Shown here piece by piece: positions 189-61,257 of a stretch of DNA of 64,000 nt; the stretch's first letter is position 1; each line of letters starts with the position of its first letter. Source of the DNA: an uncultured Atopobiaceae bacterium. Lineage in GTDB: Bacteria; Actinomycetota; Coriobacteriia; Coriobacteriales; Atopobiaceae. The notes beneath the pieces were generated by a model. That model saw only the letters and a program-made list of their open reading frames with translations, ran no database searches and was not told where the DNA came from. Both the position numbers and the translations under genes were made by a program. The DNA lies in contig CALUHH010000005.1 of NCBI GenBank assembly GCA_944320385.1, positions 1-64,000 of the forward strand. The letters run 5' to 3'.

Positions 189-256
189 CCCCGCCGTCCT
201 TCTCGGCCAGCGACTTTTGGGCGAAGCCCAATGAGCTGGCGAGAAGGACGGCGGGG
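189..256. terminator. Long inverted repeat carrying paired CGAGAAGGAC motifs after valS
   Basis: Arms 189-211 and 235-256 form a stem of about 22 bp (one bulged base) around a 23-nt loop. Each arm contains the 10-mer CGAGAAGGAC, in opposite orientations. It starts 21 bp past the valS stop codon on the minus strand, where a terminator would be expected. No clear U-tract follows, so termination is inferred from position and stem strength. Confidence 0.6.
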
Positions 257-276
257 CCTCCCGGATGCGCGAGGAC

Positions 277-2964
<2,688 letters not shown>

Positions 2965-4231: not shown

Positions 4232-4310
4232 GTGTCCTTCTCGCCATTTGAGCGCCCGCCTCGTCAATGGTAGAGTTGACGAGTCATGAAGGCGCACGAA
4301 CCGAGGTCCC

Positions 4311-5503: not shown

Positions 5504-5530
5504 GGGCGCCGCCCGAGAAGGACGACGCCC
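5504..5530 (-). terminator. Rho-independent terminator of clpX
   Basis: Read on the minus strand, GGGCGTCG pairs with CGGCGCCC (8 bp, one G-U) followed by TTTCTG. The loop contains the GTCCTTCTCG motif. It lies about 20 bp past the clpX stop codon. Confidence 0.7.
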
Positions 5531-5551: not shown

Positions 5552-6871
5552 CTATCCGGCGAGTCGGTGCTTGCCGTGCGCCTTGGAGATCAAGCGCGGC
5601 GACTCGGCGCCGCCGACGCACTCCTTGGTCACGACAACCTTGGTGATGTCGAGGTCGCTCGGCAGGTCGAACATCGTGTCTTGCAGCGTAGCCTCGCAGA
5701 TGGCGCGCAGCCCGCGAGCGCCGGTGCCGCGGTCAAGGGCCTGGCGCGCGATCTCAACGAGCGCGTCGTCCTCGAACTCCAGCTCCACGCCCTCGAGCTC
5801 GAACATGCGACGGTACTGCTTGACCAGCGCGTTGCGCGGCTGGGTGAGGATGGACACGAGGTCGTCCTCGGTGAGCTCGCGCGTGGCGGTGATCACCGGG
5901 ATGCGGCCGAGGAACTCGGGAATCATGCCGAACTTGTGCAGGTCCTGCGGCATGACCTGGCCCATGAGGTAGTCCTCGTCCTTCTCGGCGTTCTGGCCGA
6001 CCTCGGCGTTGAAGCCGATGCCCTTCTTGCCGATGCGATCCGCGACGATCTTGTCCAGCCCGACGAAGGCGCCGCCGCAGATGAACAGGATGTTGGTCGT
6101 GTCGATGCGAATGAGCTCCTGCTGGGGATGCTTGCGGCCACCCTGGGGCGGGACGCTGGCCTCGGTGCCCTCGAGGATCTTGAGGAGCGCCTGCTGCACG
6201 CCCTCGCCGGAGACGTCACGCGTGATGGAGAGGTTCTCCGCCTTGCGCGCGATCTTGTCGATCTCGTCGACGTAGACGATGCCCACCTGGGCGCGCTCGA
6301 CGTCGCCGTCAGCGGCGGTGATGAGCTTGAGCAGGATGTTCTCCACGTCCTCGCCGACATAGCCCGCCTCGGTGAGGGTGGTGGCGTCGGCGATGGCGAA
6401 GGGCACCTCGAGGAAGCGCGCGAGAGTCTGGGCGAGCAGCGTCTTGCCGGTGCCGGTGGGGCCGAGCAGCAAGATGTTGCTCTTGGCGATCTCGACCTCC
6501 TCGGCACCCTCCTCCACCTCGTCGTTTCCGGAGAGGATGCGGCGATAGTGGTTGTAGACGGCCACGCTCATGGCGCGCTTGGCCTGCTCCTGGCCCATGA
6601 CGTACTGGGAGAGCTCGTCGTAGATCTCGTGAGGCGTGGGGAGGTTCTTGATGGGCAGGCCACCATCCTCCTCGTCGAGCTCCTCGTCCTCGATGTCGGG
6701 ACGCTCCACCTCGTCGATCATGTCCGAGCACGCGTGGACGCACTCGTCACAGATGTAGACGCCACCGGGCCCGGCGATGAGCTTGCTCACCTGGCTGCGG
6801 GTCTTGCCGCAGAAGGAGCAGCGCATCTCGTTGCCAAACCCGGCGCCGCCGAAGGTGTCGTTCGTGGTCAT
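5552..6871 (-). CDS. clpX: ATP-dependent Clp protease ATP-binding subunit ClpX
   Basis: AAA+ unfoldase that feeds substrates to ClpP; 439 residues, normal length. The N-terminal zinc domain has Cys18, Cys21, Cys41 and Cys44. Walker A is GPTGTGKT near residue 138 and Walker B VYVDEID near 200, followed by the conserved [19 protein letters not shown] segment and the GRIPVI region. It starts 3 bp after the clpP stop; its ribosome site AGGAG overlaps the end of clpP, so the two are translationally linked. Confidence 0.97.
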
Positions 6872-7574: not shown

Positions 7575-8924
7575 CTACTCGGCGTCCTCGTTCTTCTCGG
7601 CCGCGGCGGCGCGCTCGGCGACCTCGTCGACGACGTTCACCTTGCAGTTCTCGACGAGCCAGTCGAGGGCCTTGGTGCGGCGGATGGAGTCGCGGACGGC
7701 GGGCAGACGGCCCTCGTCCTTCCACTGCTTGTAGGAGGCCTCGACGTCCTCGACGCCGGCGCGCTCGAACTCGCCGCGGACCTCGTCCTCGTTGACCTCG
7801 AGGCCGAGCTTGGCGGCCACGGCGTCGAGGGCGAGGGACTGACGCGCGCGCTCCTCGGCCTGGACGCGCAGGTCGGCGATGAAGTCGTCGGACTTCAGGC
7901 CGCGGGCGCGCAGGAACATGTCGAGGGAGACGTTCTGGCGCTGGAGCTGGGCCAGGAACTCCTGGGCGAGCTCGTTGAAGATCTCGTCCTGGTAGGCCTG
8001 GGGCACGGTCTCGAGGTCGAGCAGCTTGCCCACGGCCTCGACGACGCGGTCCTCCTTGAGGTTGGGGATCGTGGTCTTCTTGTCGCCCTCGATCTCCTCC
8101 TTCACGGCCTCCTTGAAGGCGTCGACGGTGTCGTAGCCGTACTTCTTGGCCATCTCGTCGTCGAGCTCGGGGGTGACGGCCTTCTTGATGCCGTTCAGGG
8201 TCACCTTGACGGAGAAGGTGTGGGAGATGGTCTCGCCGTCGTGCTCGTGGGAGCGCGTCCACTCGATGGCCTTCTCCTCGCCCCTCTTCATGCCCTCGAT
8301 GCCCTCCTGGAGCTGCTCGGGGAGCTGCTGGCCGTCAAGGGCGAGCAGGCGGTTCTTGCCCGCGAGGTGGCCGGCGCCCTCGACGTTCTCGATGTCGACG
8401 GAGACGATGTCGCCGGGCTCGACGGCACGGTCCTCCTCGACGTCCTCGTAGGTCACCTGGTAGCTGAGGAGCTGGTTGATCTGCCAGTCGATCTCGGCGT
8501 CGGTGGCCTCCTCGGGCGGGAGGTTGATCTCGGGGGCGTCATAGGAGGTGAGCTCGGCGGTAGGACGCACGCCGATGGTGGCGTCGACGACGTAGTCGGC
8601 GCCCTCGGCGGCGAGCTCGGGGTCGGCGCCCTCGGGGCCAAAGCTCACGCGGCCCACGGGGGTGACGTCGAGCTCCTCGAGCATCATGGGCTCGAGGGCG
8701 GTGAGCAGGTCGTTGGTGGCCTGGGCGAGCACGGCCTCGCGGCCGATGATGCCGTCGATCACCGGACGGGGGGCGTGGCCGCGGCGGAAGCCCTGGAAGC
8801 TGTACTTCTTGGCGATGTCCTTGTAGGTCTTCTTGATGGCTGCGTTGACGTCGGCGGCGGGAACGGTGACCTTGGCGGCCATCTTCTCGTCGACGGGCTT
8901 CTCAGCGGTGACGGTGATCTTCAA
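7575..8924 (-). CDS. tig: Trigger factor
   Basis: Ribosome-bound chaperone with peptidyl-prolyl isomerase activity, 449 residues. N-terminal ribosome-binding domain with a [11 protein letters not shown] signature (residues about 40-50), then an FKBP-type domain starting near [14 protein letters not shown], then a helical C-terminal domain ending in an acidic tail. The start is TTG at 8924-8922, with GGAGG 4 nt upstream; the longer open frame runs through the tRNA-Leu gene and is not real. It leads the tig-clpP-clpX cluster. Confidence 0.95.
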
Positions 8925-9173: not shown

Positions 9174-9312
9174 AGGGTATATACACCGCCCCTTCAGGGT
9201 ATGTACATCCCGGTCAGAGGTCCTTCTCGCAAACCCGCAGGTCAAAGGCTTGGGCGAGAAGAACCTCTCTTCCGAGATCGTACATACCCTGAAGGGGCGG
9301 TGTACATACCCT
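9174..9312. repeat. Four-arm GTATRTAC inverted-repeat element, copy A
   Basis: Arms 9174-9206 and 9280-9312 are inverted copies matching at 32 of 33 positions. Each arm holds two GGGTATRTACA motifs 22 bp apart. The interior carries an inverted pair of the 10-mer (9220 and 9255) around the sequence CAAACCCGCAGGTCA, which also occurs inside copy B at 32132-32272. The element lies between tRNA-Leu and the XRE gene. Confidence 0.85.
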
Positions 9313-9553: not shown

Positions 9554-10261
9554 TCACAGCGTCTCGTCGTCCTGCTTCTGCAGGATGCAGCCGTACTCGA
9601 AGACGCGACCAACCAGCACCAGCACGATGCCCAGCGAGACGAGCATCAGGTCCTGGGGCTCAAAGCTCGCCGTGAGCGCGTAGCTCAGCATCTCCCCGGA
9701 CTCCACCAGGGCCTGGACGACCGCAGCCGCGATGGCCTCCAGGAGCATGTGGAGCAGCGTGGGCGCGCACCCGGCGAGAAGGACCAGCCACCCCACGCGC
9801 CCCAGCTCACGCGCGCGCTCGGGGGCAAACGGAACGCCGGTCCGCCGGATCTTGGAGCACATGAGCGCCGCGAGGGCAAACGCCGCGCACGCAAGGCCGC
9901 CAAAGACGACGCCGTTGGCGAGGGTCGATACGGGGCTGCCGGAATAGGAGACATCGCCGCCCATGACCTGCGAGCGACCGACCTCGTTGCCGTCCTCGTC
10001 GTAACGAATCTCCGGAGGCTGTTCGTCCGTCTCGCTCACGAGAAAGCTGCCGCTCGCCTTGCTCGTGGTGAAGAAGGCGGTCACGGCGTCACGCCCGCTC
10101 TCCTGCATCGATGCGGTTGTGAGAAAGACCGTCGACCACGCGTTGAACAAGGCCAGGAGCAGGGCCACCAGGGCGGCGACCCAGCAGAAGCACGTCGCCA
10201 CGCGCGCGGCGCCGCGGATGCGCCCGTCCGCCTGCGCCCTTGTCAGCATCTCGTGTTTCAT
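9554..10261 (-). CDS. DUF2975-family membrane protein
   Basis: A 235-residue integral membrane protein with four predicted hydrophobic segments (about 22-45, 115-135, 155-180, 200-222) and a large extracytoplasmic loop after the first. The C-terminal FEYGCILQKQDDETL matches the typical DUF2975 ending. GGAGGGG lies 7 nt before the ATG. The XRE regulator follows 10 bp downstream in the same operon. Molecular role unknown. Confidence 0.8.
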   Translation of the reverse strand: MKHEMLTRAQADGRIRGAARVATCFCWVAALVALLLALFNAWSTVFLTTASMQESGRDAVTAFFTTSKASGSFLVSETDEQPPEIRYDEDGNEVGRSQVMGGDVSYSGSPVSTLANGVVFGGLACAAFALAALMCSKIRRTGVPFAPERARELGRVGWLVLLAGCAPTLLHMLLEAIAAAVVQALVESGEMLSYALTASFEPQDLMLVSLGIVLVLVGRVFEYGCILQKQDDETL

Positions 10262-10314
10262 CGCGACCCCTCCGTTCTTCTCGTCCAGCTGTTCTTATCG
10301 TTCTTGTACCACTA

Positions 10315-10333: not shown

Positions 10334-10456
10334 AGCGAGAAGGACGTCCGGCAGACGGCATCATCCCCTCGGCAAGCGCGCGCCTAGCCCCCCACGCTGG
10401 GTACAAGCTTGGAAACGGCAGCGATGCGGCCGCCGGCCCTTACGAAAGGGGCGACC

Positions 10457-13445: not shown

Positions 13446-13756
13446 CGCCTGCGGTCGGATCCCCCGGGGAGGCTGTCGGCACGCCAAGGCCCGCCCGCCT
13501 GCGCGGGCGTCACCGGGTCACGCCGGGAACGGGCCTCCCTAGTGGAGGGTCTCCTCGTTCGTCTGCCTCATCGCTGCCCCCTTCAAATCGACGGAAAGGC
13601 CGCGTCTAGGATAGCACGCACTTGTCAAATGAGCGCATCTCGCCGCAACGCCTGCCGGGCATGCTCCCCTTGGCCGAGTGCACCCTAGAAGCCGAGAAGA
13701 ACATCGGGCCCGTGCCTTAGAATCGGGTTCACGCTCAGCATGTCGAGGGAGGCTGC

Positions 13757-14209
13757 ATGGCAAAGACACGTCTTGGCAAGATGCCCTACGTCATCGTGTT
13801 CTGCTTGGTCATTGTGCTGGTGCTCCTCGCCTCTGGCCTGGGCTTCGTTACCGACATGCCCCTCAAGGGCATCGACCCCGACGACGTCACCTCCATTACC
13901 CTGTCGGACGCTATGGGCGTGAACGACCCCGTCACCCTCGAGGAAGAGGACCGGGACTCCGTGCTTGCCGCACTCGCGGAGCTCAGGGGAAGGCGCTTCG
14001 GAGTCGAGCGAGAGCTCAGGGACCTCCAGCTCATGGGCAGCCCGGCCGCCTACACGCTGGAGACGACCGCGGACGGGAACGTCGAGGTGCAACTCGTCAG
14101 CTACGAGGGCGAGTCGTTCTTCTCGGTCGACGGCTCATGGCGAAAGGTCGTCGGCGACCAGGAGGCCATTACGTATCTGATCGATCTCAACCAGGAGTAC
14201 GCCGTTTAG
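13757..14209 (+). CDS. Membrane-anchored small protein of unknown function
   Basis: A 150-residue protein with one N-terminal transmembrane segment (YVIVFCLVIVLVLLASGLGF, about 11-30) and an acidic extracellular domain of about 115 residues containing the motif DVTSITLSDA and the ending SVDGSWRKVVGDQEAITYL. Not recognised. GAGGGAGG lies upstream of the ATG. A lipoprotein gene follows 25 bp downstream, so they are probably co-transcribed. Confidence 0.72.
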   Translation: MAKTRLGKMPYVIVFCLVIVLVLLASGLGFVTDMPLKGIDPDDVTSITLSDAMGVNDPVTLEEEDRDSVLAALAELRGRRFGVERELRDLQLMGSPAAYTLETTADGNVEVQLVSYEGESFFSVDGSWRKVVGDQEAITYLIDLNQEYAV

Positions 14210-16954: not shown

Positions 16955-17106
16955 GGTCTTCTCCCATCAGGCGGAACTGATATGTCGAGAAGGACCTAGA
17001 GCATGTCGACCTCTCGCCGGGTACAGTACGCTACCACCCTACAGATGCAGCTCGGAAACCGGCAAGCCTTATTCGGCCAGTGGAGGCGAGCGACAAAAGG
17101 CTACCT

Positions 17107-17229
17107 GCCGGCACTTATAAGTGTCGGCTCGTCAGGGCATCCAAGATCACACTTCTCGGCGAACGCCGAGAAGGACCCGGCACTTCTCGCTCCAAAGCAT
17201 CAAATATGCCGACACTCATATGTGTCGGC
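17107..17229. repeat. Paired CCGACACTT-type palindromes with inner 10-mer motifs
   Basis: GCCGGCACTTATAAGTGTCGGC (17107-17128) and GCCGACACTCATATGTGTCGGC (17208-17229) are two 22-bp palindromes of the same motif about 100 bp apart. Between them lie ACTTCTCG, CGAGAAGGAC (17167) and ACTTCTCG. The arrangement parallels the elements at 9174 and 32132. It lies upstream of a GNAT gene. Confidence 0.7.
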
Positions 17230-42191: not shown

Positions 42192-42226
42192 GGGCGAGAA
42201 GGACGACCTCGTCGTTCTTCTCGCCC
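42192..42226. terminator. Convergent hairpin made of two inverted 10-mer motifs
   Basis: GGGCGAGAAGGACGAC (42192-42207) and GTCGTTCTTCTCGCCC (42211-42226) form a 16-bp stem with one G-U-type mismatch and a 3-nt loop. It lies exactly between the stops of two convergent genes, as uptake-sequence terminators do in Neisseria. Confidence 0.75.
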
Positions 42227-46393: not shown

Positions 46394-47662
46394 CTAGAAG
46401 CGCCTCCCCTCGCGGACGTCGATGGCGAGGTAGTCGTCCTCGCCGCGCATGAGCTTGGCAAACGCCGAGAAGGCGTAGGTGGAGTCGTTGGGGCCGGGCT
46501 TGGCCTCGGGGTGGTACTGCATGGAGAAGGCGGGGATGTCCATGAACTGGATGCCCTCGGGCGTGCCGTCGTTGAGGTTGACGTGCGTGAGGCGCACGCG
46601 CCCGTACTTCTTGGTCTGGACGACGGGCGCCACGTGGCGACGGGACCAGAAGCGCAGGTCCTCGTCGGCCGGGTGCTCGGCCACGCCGTCGGAGAGCTCG
46701 GGCACCAGCGGCCCGAAGGTCGAGAAGACCGGGCCGTAGTTGTGGTTCTGCGCGGTGATCTCCACCTTGCCGGTGAGCAGGTTCATCACGGGCTCGTTGC
46801 CGCCGTGGTGGCCGTACGGGAGCTTCTCGATCTGCGCGCCGACGGCCATGGAGATGACCTGGTTGCCGAGGCAGATGCCAAAGACCGGGAGCTTGCCGAG
46901 GCAGGCGCGCACCGCGTCAACCACGGGCGGCACGCTGACCGGGTCGCCGGGGCCGTTGGAGAAGAACACGCCGTCGGGCTCCATGGCCAGAACGTCGGCG
47001 GCCGGGGTGTCCCACGGCACGACGGTGACCTCGCAGCCGGCGGCGGAGAGGCGCTTGGCGATGCCCTTCTTCTCGCCGCAGTCGTAGGCGACGACGTGCA
47101 GGCGCGGCTGGCCGTCGGCATCCTGGCCGGGCACGGTGTAGCGCTCGGAGGTGGATACGTCAGCGACGTAGTTGTGCTCGGCGATGGCCGGGGCAGCCTT
47201 GACGCGGGCGATAAGGCTCTCGGGGTCGAGGTCGGTCGTGGAGATGGCCGCCTTCATGGCGCCGCCCTCGCGGATAGCCAGGGTCAGCGCGCGCGTGTCC
47301 ACGTCCTCGATGGCCACGACGCCGCGCTGGACGAGGAAGCTGGGCAGGGACTCGACGCTCTGCCAGTTGCTCGGCGTGTAGCACATGTCGTGGACGACGA
47401 GGCCGGCCAGATTGAGCGGGTCGCCCTGCATGTCCTTCTCGTTGATGCCGTAGTTGCCGATCTGGGGATAGGTGAGCGTCACGATCTGGCCCGCGTAGGA
47501 CGGGTCGGAGATAATCTCCTGGTAGCCCACCATCGAGGTGTTGAACACGATCTCGCCAAAGGCCTCGCCCTCGGCGCCGGCAGAACGCCCGAAGAAGTAC
47601 ATCCCGTTCTCGAGCGCGAGAAGCGCCCTCGGATGCCTGCCGTTGTCAACCAGTAGGTTCAC
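46394..47662 (-). CDS. carA: Carbamoyl-phosphate synthase small chain
   Basis: A 422-residue glutaminase subunit. The N-terminal CPSase_sm domain contains GEIVFNTSMVGYQE; the class I glutamine amidotransferase domain has the nucleophile Cys in FGICLGNQ and His/Glu in QYHPEAKPGP. It hydrolyses glutamine and channels ammonia to CarB. The GTG at 47662 has AAAGGG upstream; the ATG at 47695 lacks a ribosome site. Regulated by the attenuator at 47720-47800. Confidence 0.96.
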   Translation of the reverse strand: MNLLVDNGRHPRALLALENGMYFFGRSAGAEGEAFGEIVFNTSMVGYQEIISDPSYAGQIVTLTYPQIGNYGINEKDMQGDPLNLAGLVVHDMCYTPSNWQSVESLPSFLVQRGVVAIEDVDTRALTLAIREGGAMKAAISTTDLDPESLIARVKAAPAIAEHNYVADVSTSERYTVPGQDADGQPRLHVVAYDCGEKKGIAKRLSAAGCEVTVVPWDTPAADVLAMEPDGVFFSNGPGDPVSVPPVVDAVRACLGKLPVFGICLGNQVISMAVGAQIEKLPYGHHGGNEPVMNLLTGKVEITAQNHNYGPVFSTFGPLVPELSDGVAEHPADEDLRFWSRRHVAPVVQTKKYGRVRLTHVNLNDGTPEGIQFMDIPAFSMQYHPEAKPGPNDSTYAFSAFAKLMRGEDDYLAIDVREGRRF

Positions 47663-47902: not shown

Positions 47903-48047
47903 GTGTGCACACGGGCCGGCGTTGTGCGCACTTCTCGGCGTTGTGTACACGCCGCGGCGGTGTGCGCACTTCTCGCCAGGCCGTCTACCTGCGCTTCTGT
48001 CGAGAAGAACCATGGAGGCAGTGTACACATCGACGACGAGTGTACAC
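47903..48047. repeat. Phased array of GTGTRCRCAC/GTGTACAC palindromes
   Basis: Eight-base palindromes centre near 47907.5, 47927.5, 47946.5, 47965.5, 48024.5 and 48043.5, that is, spacings of 20, 19, 19, 59 (three times 19.7) and 19 bp. The variants are GTGTGCACAC, TGTGCGCAC and GTGTACAC. ACTTCTCG and CGAGAAGAAC (48001) occupy the gap. The spacing puts the sites on one face of the DNA. No coding sequence here. Confidence 0.75.
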
Positions 48048-48107: not shown

Positions 48108-48134
48108 CGTCAAGCTGAAGGTTCTTCTCGCCTG

Positions 48135-50979: not shown

Positions 50980-51567
50980 ATGGCCGAGAAGAACAAGGGG
51001 CTCGAGGTGGTGAGCCGCGCGCTCGAGCTCGACCCCGCGCTCGTCGAGCGCGTCGTCGGCACCAGCCACGAGTGGGAGGGGAAGATCTTCTCCGTCGAGC
51101 ACCTCAGGGTCGAGCTCTCCGACGGGAGCCTCGACTGGCGCGAGATCGTGCGCCACAACGGCGGCGCGGGCGTGATTGCCGTCGTGGACGGCCGCGTGTG
51201 CCTGGTGCGCCAGTACCGCGTCGCCCTGGGGTGCATGACGCTCGAGATCCCCGCCGGCAAGGTCGACCCCTCCGAGCCGCGCGACGTCTGCGCCGCCCGC
51301 GAGCTCACCGAGGAGACGGGACTTGTCGCCGAGCGTCTAGAGCTGCTCACCGAGTCCTACGGCGCGCCCGGCTTCACCAACGAGCACACCTCGGTCTACT
51401 TTGCCCACGGCGTGACGCAGGGCGAGGCCCACCTTGATGACGGCGAGTTTCTCAACGTTGTCTGGGTGCCGGTGGAGACCGCGGTCGAGGCCATTCGCCG
51501 CGGGCTCATACAGGACGCCAAGACCGTCGAGGGCATTCTCGCGGCCAAGGCCTTTGGTATGCTCTAA
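50980..51567 (+). CDS. Nudix hydrolase, ADP-ribose pyrophosphatase type
   Basis: A 195-residue enzyme that probably cleaves ADP-ribose to AMP and ribose 5-phosphate. The Nudix box is GKVDPSEPRDVCAARELTEETGL (residues about 96-118), preceded by LEIPAG typical of ADP-ribose hydrolases. It starts 6 bp after the nuclease stop, with GGAG upstream, so it is probably co-transcribed with it. The 10-mer motif encodes residues 2-5 (AEKN). Confidence 0.92.
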   Translation: MAEKNKGLEVVSRALELDPALVERVVGTSHEWEGKIFSVEHLRVELSDGSLDWREIVRHNGGAGVIAVVDGRVCLVRQYRVALGCMTLEIPAGKVDPSEPRDVCAARELTEETGLVAERLELLTESYGAPGFTNEHTSVYFAHGVTQGEAHLDDGEFLNVVWVPVETAVEAIRRGLIQDAKTVEGILAAKAFGML

Positions 51568-51817: not shown

Positions 51818-52822
51818 TTGATTTACACAATGACGTTGAACCCCGCCCTCGACTATGTCATGCACCCCCTGACCCTGGACATGGGATTCACCAACCGCTC
51901 TTCCAACGAGGAGCTCCACTGTGGCGGCAACGGCATCAACATCGCCACGATCCTCAACGAGCTCGAGACCCCCAGCATCGCCATGGGCATCGCTGCGGGC
52001 TTCACGGGCGACTACCTCCTCCGCCGCCTGCAGGAGAAGGGCATCGCGAGCAACTTCGTCCTTCTCGACCGCGGCTACACCCGCATCAACGTCAAGCTCA
52101 ACGGCATCGTCATGACGATGGTCAACGGCATGGGCCCCAAGATCCCCGAGAAGAAGGTCGACGAGCTCCTCCAGCGCATGGACGTCGTCGGCGCCGGTGA
52201 CACGCTCGTCCTCACGGGCTCCATCCCCAACACCCTCCCCGAGGACATGTACTCCCAGATCATGCGCCGCCTGGGCGGCCGCGGCATCCAGTTCGTCGTG
52301 GACGCCCCGGGTCAGCTGCTCATGGAGGCCCTCGAGATGCACCCGTTCCTCATCAAGCCCAACAACCACGAGGTCGGCCGCATCTACGGCGTCAACATCG
52401 AGGAGCCCGAGGAGTGCATGCCCTACGCGCACAAGCTCCAGGAGGCTGGCGCGCGCAACGTCATCATCTCCTGCGGCGGTCACGGCTCGCTGCTGCTCGA
52501 CGAGAACGGCGCCGAGCACATCGTCCCGACCGCCCGCATCAAGCTCGTCAACGCGACGGGCGCCGGCGACTCCATGGTCGGAGGCTTCCTCTCCCAGGTC
52601 ACGCATGGCGTCGACTACGAGACGGCTCTCATCTTCGCGTCCGCCTGCGGCACCGCGACGGCGGCGAGCAAGGGCATCGCAAAGCGCTCGACCATCGACC
52701 GCGTGGTCACCGCGCTCTACAAGAAGATGGGTCGAGCCATCCCCGGCACCATCGCGCGCGACATCCAGGCCAACAAGGACCGCGAGGCTGCCGCCGAGGC
52801 CGCTGCCGCGGCCGAGAACTAG
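51818..52822 (+). CDS. fruK: 1-phosphofructokinase (PfkB family)
   Basis: A 334-residue ribokinase-fold sugar kinase. The MIYTMTLNPALDYVM start is typical of 1-phosphofructokinase/tagatose-6-phosphate kinase. Other motifs: GGNGINIATIL, IKPNNHEVG, and the catalytic NATGAGDSMVGGF. An Ala/Glu-rich tail ends the protein. TTG start with AAGGAG upstream. ptsI follows directly, but no fructose permease (fruA) or HPr gene is here, so the sugar is not proved. Confidence 0.85.
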   Translation: MIYTMTLNPALDYVMHPLTLDMGFTNRSSNEELHCGGNGINIATILNELETPSIAMGIAAGFTGDYLLRRLQEKGIASNFVLLDRGYTRINVKLNGIVMTMVNGMGPKIPEKKVDELLQRMDVVGAGDTLVLTGSIPNTLPEDMYSQIMRRLGGRGIQFVVDAPGQLLMEALEMHPFLIKPNNHEVGRIYGVNIEEPEECMPYAHKLQEAGARNVIISCGGHGSLLLDENGAEHIVPTARIKLVNATGAGDSMVGGFLSQVTHGVDYETALIFASACGTATAASKGIAKRSTIDRVVTALYKKMGRAIPGTIARDIQANKDREAAAEAAAAAEN

Positions 52823-52915: not shown

Positions 52916-54619
52916 ATGTACGAGGGAGTCAACGCATCTGACGGCATCGGCATTGGCGTCGCGCGCGTCGCCGTCGAGCCCGACCTGAGCTTCACGCCGC
53001 ACAAGCCCGACGATGCCGGTGACGAGAAGCAGCGCTACGCCGCCGCCGTCGCCAAGTTCATCGAGCAGACCAACGCCCAGATCGAGCGCATGACGCAGAC
53101 CGTGGGCGAGGAGGCCGCCGCCATCATGGGCGCCCACATCGAGTTCGCCGAGGACGAGGGCATCCAGGAGATGGTCAACGGGTCGATCGATTCCGGCATG
53201 TGCGCCGAGCAGGCCGTCTCCGAGGCCTATGACATGTACTACAACATGTTCTCCAACATGGAGGACGAGCTGTTCCGCGAGCGCGCCGCCGACGTCGCCG
53301 ACGTCAAGACCGGCCTCCTCGCCGACCTGCTGGGCAAGGAGCTCGTCGACCTCTCCGCGCTGCCCGAGAACTCCGTCGTCGTCGTGCACGAGCTCACGCC
53401 GTCCATGACCGCGGACATCGACAAGGACAACGTCGCCGCCATCGTGACCGAGACCGGCGGCCGCACGTCCCACTCCGCCATCATCGCGCGCGCCCTGGAG
53501 ATCCCCGCGGTCCTCTCCGTCGCGGACTGCACCAAGAACATCAAGAGCGGCGACATGGTCATCGTCGACGGCTCCCGCGGTCGCGTCATCGCCAACCCGG
53601 CGGACAACGACCTCGCGCACTATCGCGCCAAGGCGAAGCAGTTCGCCGAGGAGAAGCAGGCTCTCGAGGCCTACCGCGGCAAGCCCACGGTCACGGGCGA
53701 CGGCGACAAGGTTCTTCTCGTCGCCAACATCGGCAACCCGGACGACGCCAACGTCGCGTCCGAGCACGACTGCGAGGGCGTGGGACTGTTCCGCTCCGAG
53801 TTCCTGTTCATGGACGCCAAGGAGCTCCCGTCCGAGGACGAGCAGTTCGCCGCTTACCAGAAGGTCGCGCTGCGCATGAAGGACCAGCCGGTCATCATCC
53901 GCACGCTCGACGTGGGCGGCGACAAGGAGATCCCGTACATGAACCTCCAGAAGGAGGAGAACCCCTTCATGGGGTACCGTGCGGTCCGCTACTGCCTCAA
54001 CAACCCCGACCAGTACAAGGTCCAGCTCACGGCGCTGCTGCGCGCCTCCGCCTTTGGCGACATCAAGATCATGGTGCCGCTCGTGACCAACATCGACGAG
54101 ATTCGCCAGGTCAAGGCGCTCGTGGACGAGTGCAAGGCCGATCTCGACGCCCGTGGCGTCTCCTATAACAAGGAGATTGAGATCGGCACCATGATCGAGA
54201 CGCCCGCCGCGTCCCTGATCGCCGACGACCTCGCCGCCGAGTGCGACTTCTTCTCCATCGGCACCAACGACCTCATCGGCTACACCATGTGCGCCGACCG
54301 CGGCAACGACAAGGTCGGCTACCTCTACGACGTCTACCAGCCCGCCGTCCTGCGCTCTCTCAAGCGCATCATCGAGGAGGGCAACAAGGCCGGCATCATG
54401 GTCGGCATGTGCGGCGAGGCCGCGGCCGACCCGCTGCTGATCCCGGTGCTCATCTCCTTTGGCCTGGGCGAGTTCTCCGTGTCCGCCCCGTCGATCCTGC
54501 GCACGCGGCGCATCATCTCCGAGTGGACCAAGGCGGAGGCCGACGCCCTCACCGAGAAGGTCATGAGGCTCAAGACCGCCGCCGAGGTCAAGGCCATGCT
54601 CCAGGCCGCCGCCCGCTAG
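52916..54619 (+). CDS. ptsI: Phosphoenolpyruvate--protein phosphotransferase (PTS enzyme I)
   Basis: A 567-residue enzyme I, first component of the sugar phosphotransferase system. The phosphorylated His lies in GGRTSHSAIIAR; the PEP-binding site signatures are DVGGDKEIPYMNL, GYRAVRYCL, MVPLVTN and the active-site Cys in MVGMCGEAAAD. ATG at 52916 has AGGTAGGGGG upstream; a hairpin (GGCCGCC/GGCGGCC) lies just before. HPr is not next to it. The stop abuts a REP-like palindrome. Confidence 0.95.
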   Translation: MYEGVNASDGIGIGVARVAVEPDLSFTPHKPDDAGDEKQRYAAAVAKFIEQTNAQIERMTQTVGEEAAAIMGAHIEFAEDEGIQEMVNGSIDSGMCAEQAVSEAYDMYYNMFSNMEDELFRERAADVADVKTGLLADLLGKELVDLSALPENSVVVVHELTPSMTADIDKDNVAAIVTETGGRTSHSAIIARALEIPAVLSVADCTKNIKSGDMVIVDGSRGRVIANPADNDLAHYRAKAKQFAEEKQALEAYRGKPTVTGDGDKVLLVANIGNPDDANVASEHDCEGVGLFRSEFLFMDAKELPSEDEQFAAYQKVALRMKDQPVIIRTLDVGGDKEIPYMNLQKEENPFMGYRAVRYCLNNPDQYKVQLTALLRASAFGDIKIMVPLVTNIDEIRQVKALVDECKADLDARGVSYNKEIEIGTMIETPAASLIADDLAAECDFFSIGTNDLIGYTMCADRGNDKVGYLYDVYQPAVLRSLKRIIEEGNKAGIMVGMCGEAAADPLLIPVLISFGLGEFSVSAPSILRTRRIISEWTKAEADALTEKVMRLKTAAEVKAMLQAAAR

Positions 54620-54752: not shown

Positions 54753-55505
54753 ATGCCAAGAGGGCCGAGGGTGCAGTCTGATTCGGGGTACTATCACGTC
54801 ATTTTGCAGGGCGCGGGCAAGCAGGTGATATTCGAGGACGATGAGGACAGGAGGACTTTTCTGCGCCTCTTGGGCCTCTCCTCTGAGCGCGCGGGGGCAA
54901 AGGTGCTGTCCTACTGCCTCATGAGCAACCATGTCCATCTCTTGATTGACGACCCGGTCAATGGCCTGAGCTCGCTCATGCACTGGCTCACTTCGACGTA
55001 TGCACGCCATTTCAACGAGCGTTGGGACCATGTGGGCCACGTCTTCCGCTCGAGGTTCTCGAGCATACCCATTGAGTCAGATGACCAGCTACTGAACGTC
55101 GTCAGGTACATCCACAGAAATCCCGTCAAGGCGCATCTCGCAGCGGCCGCTGACTATCGCTGGAGCAGCTACCACGAGTTCACTGACGGCGGTGAGATCT
55201 GTCACACCCAAGATCTTCTCGACCTGCTGGGCGGCGCAGACGGATTTCGTTCGCTGGTCGACGAAGAGGAAGGCGCTCCCTATTTCCCCCGTATCACCAA
55301 GAGAGTGCCTGATGACGATGCCGCTGACGCCGCGAAGGCGGCGCTGTGGCCCGTCCGCGCCAACGATCTCAAGGGACTTTCTCCAGACGTGCGCGCCCAA
55401 CATGTCCGATCTCTTCGCGATGCCGGGCTTTCGATTAAGCAGATGGTGAGGCTGACGGGACTAGGGCGCTATGCAATCGAGAAGGACCTGCATGACGTCT
55501 GTTAA
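54753..55505 (+). CDS. REP-associated tyrosine transposase (RAYT)
   Basis: A 250-residue single-copy HUH nuclease of the IS200/Y1 transposase group. N-terminus GYYHVILQGAGKQVIFEDDEDRRTFL, the HUH motif His60-Val-His62 (SNHVHLLID), and the catalytic Tyr119 in VVRYIHRNPVKA. The last 60 residues form a helix-turn-helix (GLSIKQMVRLTGLGRYAIEKDL). A GGGACWGTCCC palindrome lies on each side and the downstream one supplies the TAA stop. RAYTs act on such palindromes in other bacteria; it is not a classical IS, as no left/right ends are seen. Confidence 0.92.
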   Translation: MPRGPRVQSDSGYYHVILQGAGKQVIFEDDEDRRTFLRLLGLSSERAGAKVLSYCLMSNHVHLLIDDPVNGLSSLMHWLTSTYARHFNERWDHVGHVFRSRFSSIPIESDDQLLNVVRYIHRNPVKAHLAAAADYRWSSYHEFTDGGEICHTQDLLDLLGGADGFRSLVDEEEGAPYFPRITKRVPDDDAADAAKAALWPVRANDLKGLSPDVRAQHVRSLRDAGLSIKQMVRLTGLGRYAIEKDLHDVC

Positions 55506-56446: not shown

Positions 56447-56508
56447 GCGTCACCCTTCTCGAGGTCCTTCTCGCCTCGATTGTACGACACGCGGCGACGC
56501 GCCTGACG

Positions 56509-56964
56509 CTACGGCGCGATGCCGTCAACCGGTCCGAGATAAACCTTGTTGTCCGCCAGAAGAAGCGGATAGCCCACAACGGGGAGCAGGACGAGCGCGA
56601 CCGCGTAGCCCGGTCCGGCCCCGAAGGCGCGCGCCAGGCGCTCGCTCACCGCAAGCTGCGTCACGACCCAGAGCACAAGGATGAGCACAGCTATGACCTG
56701 CATCTCAAAGTATCGTCCCAGGCCGAGAAGAACGGAGAGGATCTGCGCCGCACTCGCCAAAGAGGCAACCGTGCCCAGCAGCCGGCTCCCGGAAGCTCTC
56801 TTGCACACCTCCCAGGTCGAGAAGACCGGGATGATCGCAGCCCAGCGCCTCCCGCCCATCCTTGCGAGGGCCGCCCATCTGCCAGCAACGGTGCTGAGCA
56901 TGAGAATGACGACAGCGGGAAACCACAGCGTCATGAGGGAGTTAGAGAGGAACAGGTCTTCCAC
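56509..56964 (-). CDS. DUF5684-like membrane protein
   Basis: A 151-residue protein with four helices (about 12-28, 40-50, 60-78, 88-108, 118-138, some short). The GGRRWAAIIPVFSTWEVCKRASG segment followed by a long hydrophobic stretch, LARAFGAGPGYAVALVLLPVVGYPLL and a C-terminal YLGP resemble the DUF5684/signal-peptidase-linked membrane proteins. Function unknown. Confidence 0.65.
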   Translation of the reverse strand: MEDLFLSNSLMTLWFPAVVILMLSTVAGRWAALARMGGRRWAAIIPVFSTWEVCKRASGSRLLGTVASLASAAQILSVLLGLGRYFEMQVIAVLILVLWVVTQLAVSERLARAFGAGPGYAVALVLLPVVGYPLLLADNKVYLGPVDGIAP

Positions 56965-57400: not shown

Positions 57401-58441
57401 GTGGAGAAGAACGACAGCCCCCTGCAGCACCCCTCGATCTCTGTCGTGGTGCCCTGCTATAACGAGGAGGAGAGCCTCCCCATCTTTGCCCGCGAGCTCG
57501 CCCGCGTGACCGCGGAGCTCATGGCACTGCCGACGCCGCCCCGTTCGCTTGAGCTCATCCTCGTGGACGACGGGTCAACTGACCGCACCCTCGAGGTCAT
57601 CCACGGGCTCGCGGAGCGCGACGACCTCCCCTACCAGGTCCGCTGGACCTCGTTCTCGCGCAACTTCGGCAAGGAGTCCGGCCTCTACGCCGGTCTCGAG
57701 GCGGCGCGCGGCGACCTCGTCGCCACGATGGACGCGGACATGCAGGACCCGCCCGCGCTGCTCCCCCAGATGTACTCCGACCTCCTCACGGGCGCATGGG
57801 ACTCCATCGCGACGCGCCGCGTCGACCGCGCGGGCGAGCCGCCGATCCGCTCGGCGTTCGCGCGGCTCTTCTACCGCATCATCAACAAGATCTCCGACGC
57901 CGACATCGTCGACGGCGCGCGCGACTTCCGCCTCATGACCCGGCCCGTCGTCGACGCCGTGCTCGCCATGGCCGAGCGCAACCGCTTCACAAAGGGCATC
58001 TACGGCTGGGTCGGCTTCAGGACCAAGTGGCTCCCGTACGAGAACGTCGACCGCGCGGCCGGCGAGACCAAGTGGAGCTTCTTCAAGCTCGCGCTGTACG
58101 CGCTCGACGGCGTCGCCGCGTTCTCGACCATGCCGCTCGCCATCGCCTCGGTTCTCGGCGGCCTGTTCTGCATCATCGCCCTGGTCATGGCGATCGTGGT
58201 CGTCGTCCGCGCGATCATGTTCGGCGACCCCGTCGCCGGTTGGCCGTCGCTGATGACCGCGCTCCTCCTGGTGGGCGGCGCACAGCTGCTGTGCCTCGGC
58301 GTCATCGGCCAGTACCTCGCCAAGGCCTACGTCGAGACCAAGCATCGCCCCATCTACCTCGCGCGCGAGCGCGGCGAGGGCCCCCTTCCCCAAACGGGCG
58401 CGAAGGGCGCGACCCCGGCCGAGAAGGACGTGCGCTCGTGA
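57401..58441 (+). CDS. Family 2 glycosyltransferase (polyprenyl-phosphate sugar synthase, GtrB/CsbB-like)
   Basis: A 346-residue membrane enzyme that should load a sugar from a nucleotide donor onto undecaprenyl phosphate. The GT-A domain contains SVVVPCYNEEESL, LVDDGSTD and DADMQDPP; two C-terminal helices (about 235-262, 275-300) hold it in the membrane. GTG start with AAAGGAGG 10 nt upstream. Its stop overlaps the next start (GTGA). First step of the downstream cassette. Confidence 0.93.
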   Translation: MEKNDSPLQHPSISVVVPCYNEEESLPIFARELARVTAELMALPTPPRSLELILVDDGSTDRTLEVIHGLAERDDLPYQVRWTSFSRNFGKESGLYAGLEAARGDLVATMDADMQDPPALLPQMYSDLLTGAWDSIATRRVDRAGEPPIRSAFARLFYRIINKISDADIVDGARDFRLMTRPVVDAVLAMAERNRFTKGIYGWVGFRTKWLPYENVDRAAGETKWSFFKLALYALDGVAAFSTMPLAIASVLGGLFCIIALVMAIVVVVRAIMFGDPVAGWPSLMTALLLVGGAQLLCLGVIGQYLAKAYVETKHRPIYLARERGEGPLPQTGAKGATPAEKDVRS

Positions 58442-61257
58442 CGTCGCACGTCGCGGCTTCGCCGCGTCACGCCGCGTCGGCGCCCGCGGCAGCTCCGTCG
58501 CCGCGTGACGCCTGGAGGCACCGGGCCCTGCTGTACGGGACGGCCTTCCTGCTCCCCGTGGCGCTGCTGTGCCTGCTCGCGGCGGCGCAGGGCGTCTACC
58601 CGTTTGGGGCGCAGTCCTTCCTCACCGAGGACCTCAAGTATCAGTACGTCGACTTCTTCCACTGGTACCGCAGGGTTCTCACCGGGCAGGAGTCGCTGCT
58701 CTACTCCTTCTCCCAGAGCCTCGGCAACAACGCCTGGGGCCTCTGGTCCTACTATCTGGCGAGCCCGCTCAACCTCATCATCCTGCTCTTCCCCGAGGAG
58801 CTGCTCACGCTCGCCATCTTTGTGATCTCCGCCGTCAAGCTCGGGCTTGTCGGCGTCACCACGTCCCTGTACCTGCGACGCAGGTTTTCGCTGGGCCGCT
58901 CGTCCACGCTCACCCTCTCCCTATGCTTTGCCTGCTCGCTCTGGTCCATGACCCAGCTGAGAAACCCGCTCTGGATGGACGCCGTCGTTCTGCTGCCCCT
59001 CGTGGCGCTCGGCGCGTGGCGCTGCGTCACCTCGGGCCGCTGGGGCACGCTCGCGGCGTCGCTCGTGGCCTCCATCGTCTGCTGCTGGTACATGGGCTAC
59101 ATGACCGTGCTCTTTGCCGCCCTGTGCGGGCCGCTCGAGTGGGTCGTCGCGGGCGCCACCGGCCGCGAGCGCCTCGCGAGCGGACGCGCCTTCGCCCGCT
59201 ACTGCGGCGCGCTCTGCTTCACCGTGCTGCTGAGCGCCTGGACGCTCTACCCCACCGTTGCCGCTCAGCTCGGAAACTGGTCCGCGACGAGGACCGTCGT
59301 CCTTCTCGGGGCCTCCGCCGTCGTTTTCTGCCTGGGGCTCGTCCTCGTGAGCGACCTGATTCCCGCGCGCGTGGCCGCATGGGTGGGCAGGGCCGTCGCC
59401 GTCCTGACGGTGGTGGGAGTCGTCGCCTACGTGGTTCCGCCCACCATCCAGGTGGCCCTCTCGAGCACGCTCGAGAACGGCCTGCGCGCGTCGCTCACCT
59501 CCAAGCCGCGCTCCATCCTCGCGAGCCCCTTCTTCGGCACCTGGCGCATCAACCTCGTGCCGCAGCTCTTCGCGGGCAGCCTCCCGCTGCTCGGCGCGCT
59601 CTGCCTGCTGCTGTGCCGGCGCATCAGCCGGCGCGCCCGCGTCGCCGCCGCCCTCTTCCTCGCGGTCCTTCTCTTCAGCTCGACGATCTGGATGGCCTAC
59701 CTCATCTGGTGCGGCTTCAGGACGCCCAACGGCTTCTACTGCCGCAACTCTCTCTTCTTCGTCTTTGCCGCCATCTGGGCAACGGGGCTGTACCTCTCCT
59801 ACCGCGGGAGCTCCGCGTTTCCCCGCGAGGTCCTCGTGGCCACGCCCGCGATGGTGGCCTTCTCCACGCTCTGCTCGATCCTGGGGCCCGACCCCAGCCT
59901 GCCCCTCGTCCTCATGGGCGACTGCCTCCTGATCTCCTATGGCATCCTGCTGCTGCCGCTCGCCCACCGCGTCGTGGCGACGGCACTTCCCGCGCTGACC
60001 TTCATGGAGCTTCTCGCGAGCGCCGCCCTCGCGTGGCCCGCCGCGTACGCAAACTACGCGCAGGCTGAGTACGACGCCTACTATGAGACCGCCCGGCAGG
60101 AGATCGACGCCCTCAGGGAGCATGACGACGGCACCTACCGCGTGGAGAAGACCTACACGCGCGCCGGCATGGCCGCCCAGGGCGAGGGCCTCGCCCTCGG
60201 GTTCAACCGCATCGGCTCGTACTGCTCCTCCTACAACGCCAACGCCGTCAGCTTCCTCAACGCGCTCGGCTACTCCGACCCGGTGTGGTTCTCGGTCGCG
60301 TACCGCACGCCGGTCCTGCCGAGCGACACCCTGCTCGGGGTGAGGTACGTCTTCTCGCGCGTTCCCGTGAACGCGCTCGAGCCCCTCGAGCTCGACGGCC
60401 TGGCCGACGGCGACCTGCTCTACGAGAACCCCGACGCGCTCTCCCTGGGCTACGCCTCGTCCGCCGGCGTCACGGCCGACGCCCCCGAGGGCGCAGGCCC
60501 CTTCGAGACGCAGAACTGGTTCGCGAGCTCGGTGGCGGGGCACGAGGTCACGCTCTACCGCCCGCTCGAGGCCACCCTCGTCGAGGGCGACGACGGCGTG
60601 CGCACGTGGGAGGTCACGGTTCCGGCCGGGACGCTCGCGTGCTCCTGGATCGACTCCACCTCAAACGTCACCTACCTCTACGAGGTTGACGACGACACGG
60701 CCGAGTGGGCAGACGCCACCGGGGTTGAGGGAGCCGCCTGGGACAACGCGCGCTTCAGCCATGCCGTGCGCATGCTCGGCGACGTCTCTGAGACCGAGCG
60801 CACCGTGACCGTGTCCCTCAAGAGCTCCGTGGAGCCCGCCGAGGGCTCCGGGGCCCTGCCCGAGGATGCCCGGTGCATCTTCTACGGGCTCGACATGAGC
60901 GCATACGAGCAGCTGGTGGACGAGCTCTCGCAGGAGCAGCTCGACGTCACCACGTGCGCCGGCAACGTCCTCGAGGGCACGTTCGAGTCGAGCGGCGCGG
61001 CGGACGGCCTGCTGCTTTCCGTCCCCTACGACACCGGCTGGACCGTCACCCTCGACGGCGGCACCGTCGAGGCGCAGCCCGCGTGCGGCGGCGCCCTGAC
61101 CTACGTGCCGGTCGACGATGCCGGCACCCACGAGCTCAAGATGAGCTACGTTCCCCCGATGCTCGTCCAGGGGACGTGCGCTACACTTGCCAGCGCCGTC
61201 GCGCTTCTCGCGATGCGCGCCGTAACCAGGAGAAGGAGCGGAGGGATCGGGGCTTGA
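58438..61257 (+). CDS. YfhO-family membrane glycosyltransferase
   Basis: A 939-residue protein with about 13 helices in the first 550 residues and a large extracytoplasmic domain at residues about 550-900, then a final helix. Early QSFLTEDLKYQYVDFFHW and the following SLGNNAWG pattern are typical of YfhO. In Bacillus, YfhO moves a sugar from the lipid carrier made by CsbB to lipoteichoic acid. GTG start from the 4-bp overlap; longer frames are shadows of the GT2 gene. Confidence 0.9.
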   Translation: MTSHVAASPRHAASAPAAAPSPRDAWRHRALLYGTAFLLPVALLCLLAAAQGVYPFGAQSFLTEDLKYQYVDFFHWYRRVLTGQESLLYSFSQSLGNNAWGLWSYYLASPLNLIILLFPEELLTLAIFVISAVKLGLVGVTTSLYLRRRFSLGRSSTLTLSLCFACSLWSMTQLRNPLWMDAVVLLPLVALGAWRCVTSGRWGTLAASLVASIVCCWYMGYMTVLFAALCGPLEWVVAGATGRERLASGRAFARYCGALCFTVLLSAWTLYPTVAAQLGNWSATRTVVLLGASAVVFCLGLVLVSDLIPARVAAWVGRAVAVLTVVGVVAYVVPPTIQVALSSTLENGLRASLTSKPRSILASPFFGTWRINLVPQLFAGSLPLLGALCLLLCRRISRRARVAAALFLAVLLFSSTIWMAYLIWCGFRTPNGFYCRNSLFFVFAAIWATGLYLSYRGSSAFPREVLVATPAMVAFSTLCSILGPDPSLPLVLMGDCLLISYGILLLPLAHRVVATALPALTFMELLASAALAWPAAYANYAQAEYDAYYETARQEIDALREHDDGTYRVEKTYTRAGMAAQGEGLALGFNRIGSYCSSYNANAVSFLNALGYSDPVWFSVAYRTPVLPSDTLLGVRYVFSRVPVNALEPLELDGLADGDLLYENPDALSLGYASSAGVTADAPEGAGPFETQNWFASSVAGHEVTLYRPLEATLVEGDDGVRTWEVTVPAGTLACSWIDSTSNVTYLYEVDDDTAEWADATGVEGAAWDNARFSHAVRMLGDVSETERTVTVSLKSSVEPAEGSGALPEDARCIFYGLDMSAYEQLVDELSQEQLDVTTCAGNVLEGTFESSGAADGLLLSVPYDTGWTVTLDGGTVEAQPACGGALTYVPVDDAGTHELKMSYVPPMLVQGTCATLASAVALLAMRAVTRRRSGGIGA

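What the first reader, a model, noticed from the sequence alone, without database searches (positions are those of the whole stretch)
196..59308. CGAGAAGRAC is massively over-represented: candidate DNA-uptake sequence in an actinobacterium
I count 57 exact copies of CGAGAAGRAC in 64 kb (27 on the plus strand, 30 on the minus), about one per 1.1 kb. Random DNA of this composition would give well under one. Copies occur in genes (encoding EKD/EKN or VLL/VLLG in many unrelated proteins) and between genes, so codon preference cannot explain them. Density, strand balance, extended flanks (GSCGAGAAGRACS) and frequent inverted pairs at gene ends all match uptake sequences of Neisseriaceae and Pasteurellaceae. 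I know of no uptake sequence described for Actinobacteria.
Basis: partly seen in the sequence, partly recalled or inferred. Interest (0 to 1): 0.93.

Follow-up and report, generated by a model that had tools for sequence, protein, structure and literature searches.

The report
Candidate DNA-uptake tag in gut actinobacteria
A ten-letter DNA word is repeated about 1,500 times through the genome of a gut actinobacterium and, in other spellings, through some related genera, which looks like a "self" label read when cells take up DNA; such labels are known in two families of very different bacteria, and here uptake itself is untested.

Summary
CGAGAAGRAC occurs 57 times in the window (0.46 expected) and 749+768 times in the 2.24 Mb genome (reversed control 20+23), without replichore bias where tested. 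Codon use does not explain it: intergenic copies are 117 against 0.42 expected, antisense copies inside genes 89 against 5.6 after synonymous shuffling. The genus is Thermophilibacter (Atopobiaceae, Coriobacteriia, Actinomycetota): 30 of 31 genomes have 623-1517 copies, one has 255. Related genera carry other spellings of the core: g36 CTGCCGAGAARCSC, g46 CGGGCGAGAAGGACG, possibly Lancefieldella TGGCGAGAAG, like the dialects of Neisseriaceae uptake sequences. In two Thermophilibacter samples copies are about four times denser between genes than in them; the excess of inverted pairs is modest. The genome encodes ComEA, ComEC, DprA and one type IV filament machine, a Tad/Flp pilus, the type required for transformation in Micrococcus luteus. 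The tad and comEA promoters share a short element. Best explanation: an independently evolved DNA-uptake sequence of a Tad-pilus competence system. Uptake preference and receptor are untested.

The parts
196..205 (-). uptake-word copy, intergenic; inverted neighbour at 240
240..249 (+). uptake-word copy, intergenic; inverted neighbour at 196
421..430 (-). uptake-word copy, in gene
736..745 (-). uptake-word copy, in gene
4234..4243 (-). uptake-word copy, intergenic
5514..5523 (+). uptake-word copy, intergenic
5978..5987 (-). uptake-word copy, in gene
7590..7599 (-). uptake-word copy, in gene
9220..9229 (-). uptake-word copy, intergenic; inverted pair with 9255, folds as hairpin (z -3.2, 1 of 200 shuffles as good)
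9255..9264 (+). uptake-word copy, intergenic; inverted pair with 9220
9775..9784 (+). uptake-word copy, in gene, antisense
10274..10283 (-). uptake-word copy, intergenic; inverted pair with 10336
10336..10345 (+). uptake-word copy, intergenic; inverted pair with 10274
13693..13702 (+). uptake-word copy, intergenic
14116..14125 (-). uptake-word copy, in gene, antisense
14642..14651 (-). uptake-word copy, in gene, antisense
15008..15017 (+). uptake-word copy, in gene
15472..15481 (+). uptake-word copy, in gene, antisense
16986..16995 (+). uptake-word copy, intergenic
17167..17176 (+). uptake-word copy, intergenic
18898..18907 (-). uptake-word copy, in gene
21010..21019 (+). uptake-word copy, in gene
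21565..21574 (-). uptake-word copy, in gene, antisense
22149..22158 (+). uptake-word copy, in gene, antisense
23307..23316 (+). uptake-word copy, in gene, antisense
24322..24331 (-). uptake-word copy, in gene
24694..24703 (+). uptake-word copy, intergenic
26451..26460 (+). uptake-word copy, in gene
27010..27019 (-). uptake-word copy, in gene, antisense
27232..27241 (-). uptake-word copy, in gene, antisense
27977..27986 (+). uptake-word copy, intergenic
28879..28888 (-). uptake-word copy, intergenic
29516..29525 (+). uptake-word copy, in gene
30719..30728 (+). uptake-word copy, intergenic
31023..31032 (-). uptake-word copy, in gene, antisense
32036..32045 (-). uptake-word copy, in gene, antisense
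32213..32222 (+). uptake-word copy, intergenic
32536..32545 (-). uptake-word copy, in gene
32712..32721 (+). uptake-word copy, in gene, antisense
34960..34969 (-). uptake-word copy, in gene
36565..36574 (-). uptake-word copy, in gene
38180..38189 (-). uptake-word copy, intergenic; inverted pair with 38206, folds as hairpin (z -5.1)
38206..38215 (+). uptake-word copy, intergenic; inverted pair with 38180
41142..41151 (-). uptake-word copy, intergenic
42195..42204 (+). uptake-word copy between convergent genes; inverted pair with 42214, hairpin -31.3 kcal/mol, z -7.9
42214..42223 (-). uptake-word copy between convergent genes; inverted pair with 42195
47432..47441 (-). uptake-word copy, in gene
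48001..48010 (+). uptake-word copy, intergenic; inverted pair with 48121
48121..48130 (-). uptake-word copy, intergenic; inverted pair with 48001
50985..50994 (+). uptake-word copy, in gene
52058..52067 (-). uptake-word copy, in gene, antisense
53711..53720 (-). uptake-word copy, in gene, antisense
55478..55487 (+). uptake-word copy, intergenic
56464..56473 (-). uptake-word copy, intergenic
56724..56733 (+). uptake-word copy, intergenic
58420..58429 (+). uptake-word copy, in gene
59299..59308 (-). uptake-word copy, in gene, antisense

Best explanation
CGAGAAGRAC is the DNA-uptake sequence (DUS) of Thermophilibacter, one dialect of a family of related words in Atopobiaceae. Proposed mechanism: a competent cell makes a Tad/Flp pilus from the tad operon; a surface-exposed component (a TadE/TadF-like minor pilin or TadG, or at the membrane ComEA) binds double-stranded DNA carrying the word; the DNA passes to ComEA and one strand through ComEC; DprA loads RecA and the strand recombines. 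DNA from close kin carries the word and is favoured, and each recombination that copies a word into a site without one makes the word spread over the genome, mostly where selection permits it (between genes). Shown here: the over-representation, its placement, its independence of codon use, the other spellings with a shared core in related genera, the presence of the uptake genes, and a short element shared by the tad and comEA-comEC promoters. Inferred: that DNA with the word is taken up better, which protein reads it, and the drive that spreads it.
For: (1) Genome-wide 1517 copies, 749 forward and 768 reverse. (2) Intergenic 117 observed vs 0.42 expected in 73.6 kb; in 410 called genes antisense 89 vs a mean of 5.6 (largest 13 of 40 shuffles) after protein-preserving codon shuffling, sense 97 vs 60 (largest 67). 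(3) 1.39, 1.91 and 2.53 copies per kb in divergent, tandem and convergent intergenic DNA, 0.45 per kb in coding; intergenic/coding ratio 3.9 in both G000 and G006. (4) 30 of 31 genus genomes with 623-1517 copies and 3 of 3 of genus g46 with 650-867; the spelling GCCGAGAARCSC instead in 2 of 2 of g36 (334 and 357 copies, reversed controls 6 and 5) against 19-28 in g46; in intergenic DNA alone the top de novo words of G000, g46 and g36 are these words. (5) One PF00437 ATPase, in a tad/flp cluster; ComEA, ComEC, DprA. (6) TTCGYG-N3-5-GSTTTCT occurs twice in the genome, before tad and before comEA-comEC (reversed control 1). (7) A Tad locus is required for transformation in M. luteus (passages of PMC4322843 and PMC6668835); Neisseriaceae DUS have dialects with a shared core, intergenic preference and inverted pairs (passages of PMC3630211).
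Against: No uptake assay could be run, and I know of no report of transformation in this genus. ComEC (57 of 59 genomes) and a T2SSE ATPase (137 of 140) are found with or without the word, so machinery does not predict it. The one candidate receptor that I aligned does not follow the dialects: the basic YRPWPRLLRMPG stretch of a TadE-like protein is largely kept in the L075-L100 loci but not in G129 of g46, which uses nearly the same word. Inverted pairs are only modestly in excess. Intergenic enrichment is weak in g46 (ratio 1.3-1.6, poor gene calls) and absent in Lancefieldella (3 intergenic, 31 coding copies of GGCGAGAAG). Genus g53 has both words at middling levels (279-412 and 103-148) and no clean word of its own. 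Sites in genes turn over (40 of 126 kept vs 15.6% of control words against L075-L100; 5 of 20 vs 34% against G006; 2 of 10 vs 25% against G026). Of the five motif-free gaps over 7.2 kb in 484 kb, two hold transposase or integrase genes and three seem to hold ordinary genes. G026 of the genus has nearly lost the word (255 copies; no preference for it in 260 kb). The promoter element is not evident before comEA of G026 (read by eye), and its pattern was written after seeing the two promoters.
Confidence: 0.73

Rival explanations
1. A Chi-like recombination hotspot: a cytosolic helicase-nuclease (AddAB, RecBCD or AdnAB type) reads the word in one orientation and switches to recombination.
For: Chi sites are also short, non-palindromic, abundant and differ between genera (recalled). 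Many copies lie in genes in the sense orientation (97).
Against: No replichore polarity in the complete genome G006: the best split puts 57% of 112 sampled sites in one class, bias 16 against a mean of 18.7 for random signs. Fourfold intergenic enrichment is not a feature of Chi as I know it. Ten or more specified positions at one per 1.5 kb is longer and denser than described Chi sites (recalled). The presence or type of helicase-nuclease was not examined.
Confidence: 0.11
2. A binding site for a sequence-specific chromosome-organising or nucleoid protein.
For: Genome-wide, both strands, intergenic preference.
Against: Spacing is random (CV 1.01 for 298 intervals). Sites are not kept at one place: the RsgA-CpaB gap has the word in 5 of the 25 loci of L075-L100 where it could be read, in 0 of 6 others, and in the window's own genome.
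Confidence: 0.08
3. Transcription terminators or mRNA 3'-end hairpins built from the word.
For: Three of the five intergenic inverted pairs that one search lists in the window were folded and form strong hairpins; convergent gaps are richest.
Against: 26 inverted neighbour pairs among 305 sites in 484 kb; 186 sites lie inside genes; the simple scan finds no terminator-like T-run at the pairs in 38000-48500. Hairpins look like a secondary use, as in Neisseria.
Confidence: 0.05
4. Codon or peptide preference, or a mobile repeat, with no role of its own.
For: EKD (70) and EKN (34) tripeptides are commoner than their permutations, and many genomes of other families have somewhat more copies than of the reversed pattern.
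Against: Intergenic 117 vs 0.42 and antisense 89 vs 5.6; little shared flank outside -3..+12. The peptide bias is better read as a consequence of the word.
Confidence: 0.03

Closest known systems
Neisseriaceae DUS (GCCGTCTGAA and dialects), read by minor pilin ComP
   Same: Short non-palindromic word in hundreds to thousands of copies, both strands, intergenic preference, dialects sharing a short core.
   Different: Different sequence; Gram-positive actinobacteria; no N_methyl (T4a-type) pilin over cut-off in this genome, so no ComP-type receptor seen; the only T2SSE ATPase belongs to a Tad/Flp cluster.
Pasteurellaceae USS (Haemophilus influenzae)
   Same: Abundant word of 9 bp (listing), both strands (recalled).
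   Different: Different sequence; the AT-rich flanking extensions that I recall for USS are not seen here.
Micrococcus luteus Tad/Flp-dependent natural transformation
   Same: Actinobacterium with comEA and comEC, no comG cluster, tad genes required for transformation (passages of PMC4322843 and PMC6370729).
   Different: 'sequence specific' and 'uptake sequence' have 0 occurrences in the main text of PMC4322843; two tad clusters there, one T2SSE ATPase here.
Chi sites (GCTGGTGG and others; recalled)
   Same: Short abundant oriented word.
   Different: No replichore polarity in G006 and strong intergenic enrichment here.

Membership tests
DNA-uptake sequence (functional class) | Short non-palindromic word over-represented across the whole genome | tested here: met
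DNA-uptake sequence (functional class) | Present on both strands without replication polarity | tested here: met
   (749/768); polarity tested in G006 only
DNA-uptake sequence (functional class) | Enriched between genes | tested here: met
   ratio 3.9 in G000 and G006, 3-7 in g36; weak in g46 and absent in g35
DNA-uptake sequence (functional class) | Frequent inverted pairs at gene ends | tested here: inconclusive
   26 inverted vs 10 same-strand neighbours within 120 bp (p 0.011), 15 vs 7 within 60 bp (p 0.13); hairpins
DNA-uptake sequence (functional class) | Shared by close relatives, with dialects in related genera around a constant core | tested here: met
   g53 mixed, Lancefieldella thin
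DNA-uptake sequence (functional class) | Natural-transformation genes in the genome | tested here: met
   ComEC; ComEA; DprA; Tad; expression untested
DNA-uptake sequence (functional class) | Scarce in mobile elements | tested here: inconclusive
   two of the five motif-free gaps over 7.2 kb carry transposases or an integrase, three do not
DNA-uptake sequence (functional class) | DNA with the word is taken up preferentially | not testable with these tools
   needs a transformation or uptake assay
Neisseria-type DUS read by ComP | T4a-type minor pilin receptor with N_methyl signature | tested here: not met
   no PF07963 match over cut-off; best 15.5 bits vs 21.2
Chi site | Orientation bias with replication | tested here: not met
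   G006, 112 sampled sites
Chi site | Recognised by the helicase-nuclease | not testable with these tools
   -

The most novel reading that the evidence does not exclude
A third, independently evolved DNA-uptake-sequence system, the first in Gram-positive bacteria and in Actinomycetota, read by a Tad/Flp pilus (not a T4a pilus), with three or four genus-level dialects around a CGAGAAR core in Atopobiaceae of the gut and mouth.
Probability: 0.68. Interest if true: 0.93.

Novelty: new variant of a known kind. Interest (0 to 1): 0.88.

Why it matters
As far as I know, uptake sequences are established in two proteobacterial families only (Neisseriaceae, Pasteurellaceae). An independent case in monoderm actinobacteria would show that self-labelling of DNA evolves repeatedly, would give the Tad pilus a sequence-specific DNA-binding role, would predict natural transformation in anaerobes of the gut and mouth for which few genetic tools exist (my knowledge), and gives a practical handle: put the word on donor DNA. 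Dialects make the role of uptake words in species isolation testable in a second clade.

Tried and rejected
Replication polarity: the listed sites looked all-plus after 142 kb of contig C1; reading the sequence showed a listing artefact (every 10 kb bin from 140 to 220 kb has both strands). Chi- and KOPS-type polarity disfavoured with G006. Codon explanation rejected. Machinery as predictor: ComEC and T2SSE are nearly universal, so the test does not discriminate. Receptor by sequence: TadE2 (C1:55242-55676 of the genome) has the most basic 25-residue stretch of the six proteins checked, but it does not follow the dialects; I ran no structure prediction because it could not show DNA specificity. 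Site conservation: mixed. Genus g53 gave no clean de novo word. In G026, G095, G032, G034 and G133 no word with this core is a top intergenic word. Literature: nine searches of an open-access library; among the listed titles and abstract starts none describes an uptake sequence in Actinobacteria or Coriobacteriia; some searches listed only 20 of 2,845, 10 of 2,211 and 15 of 314 papers; subscription papers and preprints are mostly not held. Of papers I saw passages of PMC6668835, PMC3630211, PMC6370729 and PMC4322843; of the others listings only.

Gene calls come from my own codon-usage script, not a standard caller; coding fraction 0.84, so some intergenic DNA may be missed genes. In one search the calls at the tad locus of g46 were on the wrong strand; I used tblastn there. 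Of loci L075-L100, called g1 in my scripts, 17 are tied to g1 by identical counts; the other nine only by TadA identity of 77-84%. On rechecking I added a null for inverted pairs and compartment densities for other genera; both came out weaker than I had first written, and I lowered the main odds from 0.75 to 0.73 and the novel case from 0.70 to 0.68.

Full report
Observation. The whole genome (2,235,343 bases, 58 contigs, 94.8% complete) has 749 forward and 768 reverse copies and 20 + 23 of the reversed pattern. In a 464 kb sample, the single-letter neighbours of CGAGAAGGAC (161 copies) and CGAGAAGAAC (130) have 0-23 copies at every position except position 9, where other letters are tolerated (21-73 copies). 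Position -2 is G in 72-76% of copies and position +10 mostly G or C; outside -3..+12 intergenic copies share at most 0.17 bits per position, so this is an isolated word, not part of a longer repeat.

Not codon use. In 410 called genes I shuffled synonymous codons while keeping each protein: antisense copies fall from 89 to a mean of 5.6 and sense copies from 97 to 60. Intergenic DNA has 117 copies where a dinucleotide model gives 0.42. The proteome itself carries the mark: EKD 70 and EKN 34, against 8, 7 and 8 for DKE, EDK and KED.

Placement. In 484 kb (305 sites) copies are 0.45 per kb in coding DNA and 1.39, 1.91 and 2.53 per kb in divergent, tandem and convergent intergenic DNA. The intergenic/coding ratio is 3.9 in G000 and 3.9 in the second species G006. 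There are 26 inverted neighbour pairs that share an intergenic region. Within 120 bp, neighbours are inverted 26 times and same-strand 10 times (p 0.011); within 60 bp 15 and 7 (p 0.13), where random placement with the same compartment counts gives 8.7 inverted on average and at most 16 in 200 runs: a modest excess. Of the five pairs that one search lists in the window I folded three: 42195/42214, between convergent genes, -31.3 kcal/mol (z -7.9); 38180/38206 (z -5.1); 9220/9255 (z -3.2, one of 200 shuffles as good). The simple terminator scan of 38000-48500 finds no site at the pairs. Spacing is random (CV 1.01), and G006 shows no replichore bias (112 sites from 19 stretches; best split 57%).

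Organism and distribution. TadA relatives in named genomes are Olsenella, Thermophilibacter and unnamed Atopobiaceae; counts per genome equal those of g1 handles (T. provencensis L083 = G022, T. gallinarum L094 = G025, T. mediterraneus L077 = G007) and Lancefieldella rimae L102 equals G098 of genus g35. I therefore take g1 as Thermophilibacter (Atopobiaceae, Coriobacteriia, Actinomycetota) and g35 as Lancefieldella. Of 31 g1 genomes 30 have 623-1517 copies and G026 has 255. Forward and reverse counts are close (largest departure 454 to 546 in G013). Among the other 109 family genomes g46 has 650-867 (3 of 3), g53 279-412 (8 of 8), Lancefieldella 171-294 (5 of 5; G+C 0.47 over the 140 kb sampled), g47 258 and 290 (2 of 2), G111 442, G121 403, G095 395, G181 259, G120 258, G034 251; the rest are below 250. 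In the wider order, 160 genomes of other families have at most 299; the four highest are the four members sampled of one genus, g82 of family f10 (248-299). The reversed-pattern control is not codon-matched, so two- or threefold excesses should not be over-read.

Dialects. De novo counting in g36 (180 kb from two genomes) finds CTGCCGAGAA 43 vs 1.8 expected and TGCCGAGAAA 27 vs 1.1; in g46 GGGCGAGAAG 79 vs 6.1; in Lancefieldella TGGCGAGAAG 20 vs 1.6 (first seen). In intergenic DNA alone the top words of g46 and g36 are again these; in G000 the word is first at 8 and at 10 letters, in G006 first at 8 and fourth at 10 letters beside a second, REP-like repeat; in Lancefieldella a fragment of it is first at 8 letters with only 5 copies. 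Intergenic enrichment is 3 to 7 fold in g36, 1.3 to 1.6 fold in g46 (where gene calls are poor) and absent in Lancefieldella, so the last is only a candidate dialect. Over the family, GCCGAGAARCSC gives 334 and 357 in the two g36 genomes (controls 6 and 5), 77 in the 0.6 Mb partial genome G085 (9 copies of the first word), 40-121 in g1, 19-28 in g46 and 103-148 in g53. g1 and g46 on one side and g36 on the other are thus reciprocally enriched while keeping CGAGAAR; g53 has both words at middling levels. This resembles Neisseriaceae DUS: dialects with a common core, and some genomes without any (passages of PMC3630211).

Machinery. The genome has one PF00437 ATPase, TadA, in a tad/flp cluster at C1:54-64 kb: CpaB-, TadZ-, TadA-, TadB-, TadC-like proteins, a Flp pilin, TadE-like proteins and a large TadG-like protein. 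Pfam confirms T2SSE, T2SSF, a CbiA/ParA ATPase and one TadE; Flp, TadE2 and TadG got no Pfam match and are named from their sequence, order and resemblance. No N_methyl pilin passes the cut-off. ComEA (HHH_3, SLBB) and ComEC lie together on C3, DprA on C26. This is what M. luteus uses: comEA/comEC plus tad, no comG (passages of PMC6370729 and PMC4322843). The 245 bp before the tad operon finds the comEA upstream region as its best match among 242 others, and the reverse holds, with small margins (36 vs 32 and 36 vs 35). The shared element, AGCT..GTTGCAGCTTCGYG..GCGGTTTCT, contains a pattern that occurs twice in the genome, at these two promoters (reversed control 1); I wrote the pattern after seeing the two. 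By eye it is not evident before comEA of G026. It suggests joint regulation of pilus and uptake channel, as modest support.

Weighing. The set of features fits an uptake sequence better than any rival. What is missing is function: it is not shown that DNA with the word enters better, and the receptor is open. The TadE-like candidate does not follow the dialects. Family members with few copies also have ComEC and a T2SSE ATPase, as would be expected if specificity can be gained or lost on a common machine, but that makes machinery a weak predictor. Turnover of sites between species agrees with a global rather than a local role.

Scores. I put 0.73 on the uptake-sequence reading and 0.68 on its being an independently evolved, Tad-pilus-read system. 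In nine searches of an open-access library no listed paper reports it.

Noticed in passing
window 5439, 5479, 13427, 32308, 43160, 49667, 54629, 55508, 57056 (GGGGACWGTCCC): A second dispersed element, a palindromic REP-like repeat (AATTGGGGACAGTCCCC / TCAAAAGGGGACTGTCCCC), 16 strand matches in the window vs 0.03 expected; other dispersed intergenic repeats with other letters in g53, G034 and G032.
   Followed up: partly
G000 C1:63989-64005 and C3:72091-72108: Promoters of the tad operon and of comEA-comEC share a short element; its pattern occurs at these two places only in the genome: candidate competence-regulon site.
   Followed up: partly
L077:9119-13263 (Thermophilibacter mediterraneus): A serine recombinase and an S24-type peptidase gene sit directly after tadC, where flp and TadE genes lie in relatives: a mobile element seems to interrupt the tad operon; no copy of the word in it.
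   Followed up: partly
G026 (genus g1): One complete genome of the genus has nearly lost the word (255 copies; no preference in 260 kb) while keeping ComEC and T2SSE matches.
   Followed up: partly
genus g82 of family f10 (G231, G288, G297, G311): Four of four sampled genomes outside the family have 248-299 copies on nearly balanced strands; possible further dialect.
   Followed up: no
L170-L173 (G133, genus g48): Long poly-C runs: CCCCCCCC 47 vs 1.8 expected in 80 kb; possible phase-variation tracts.
   Followed up: no
window 47943, 48021, 48040: Palindrome GTGTACAC clustered in one intergenic region (3 vs 0.13 expected) and frequent in other intergenic DNA of the genome; possible regulator site.
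   Followed up: no
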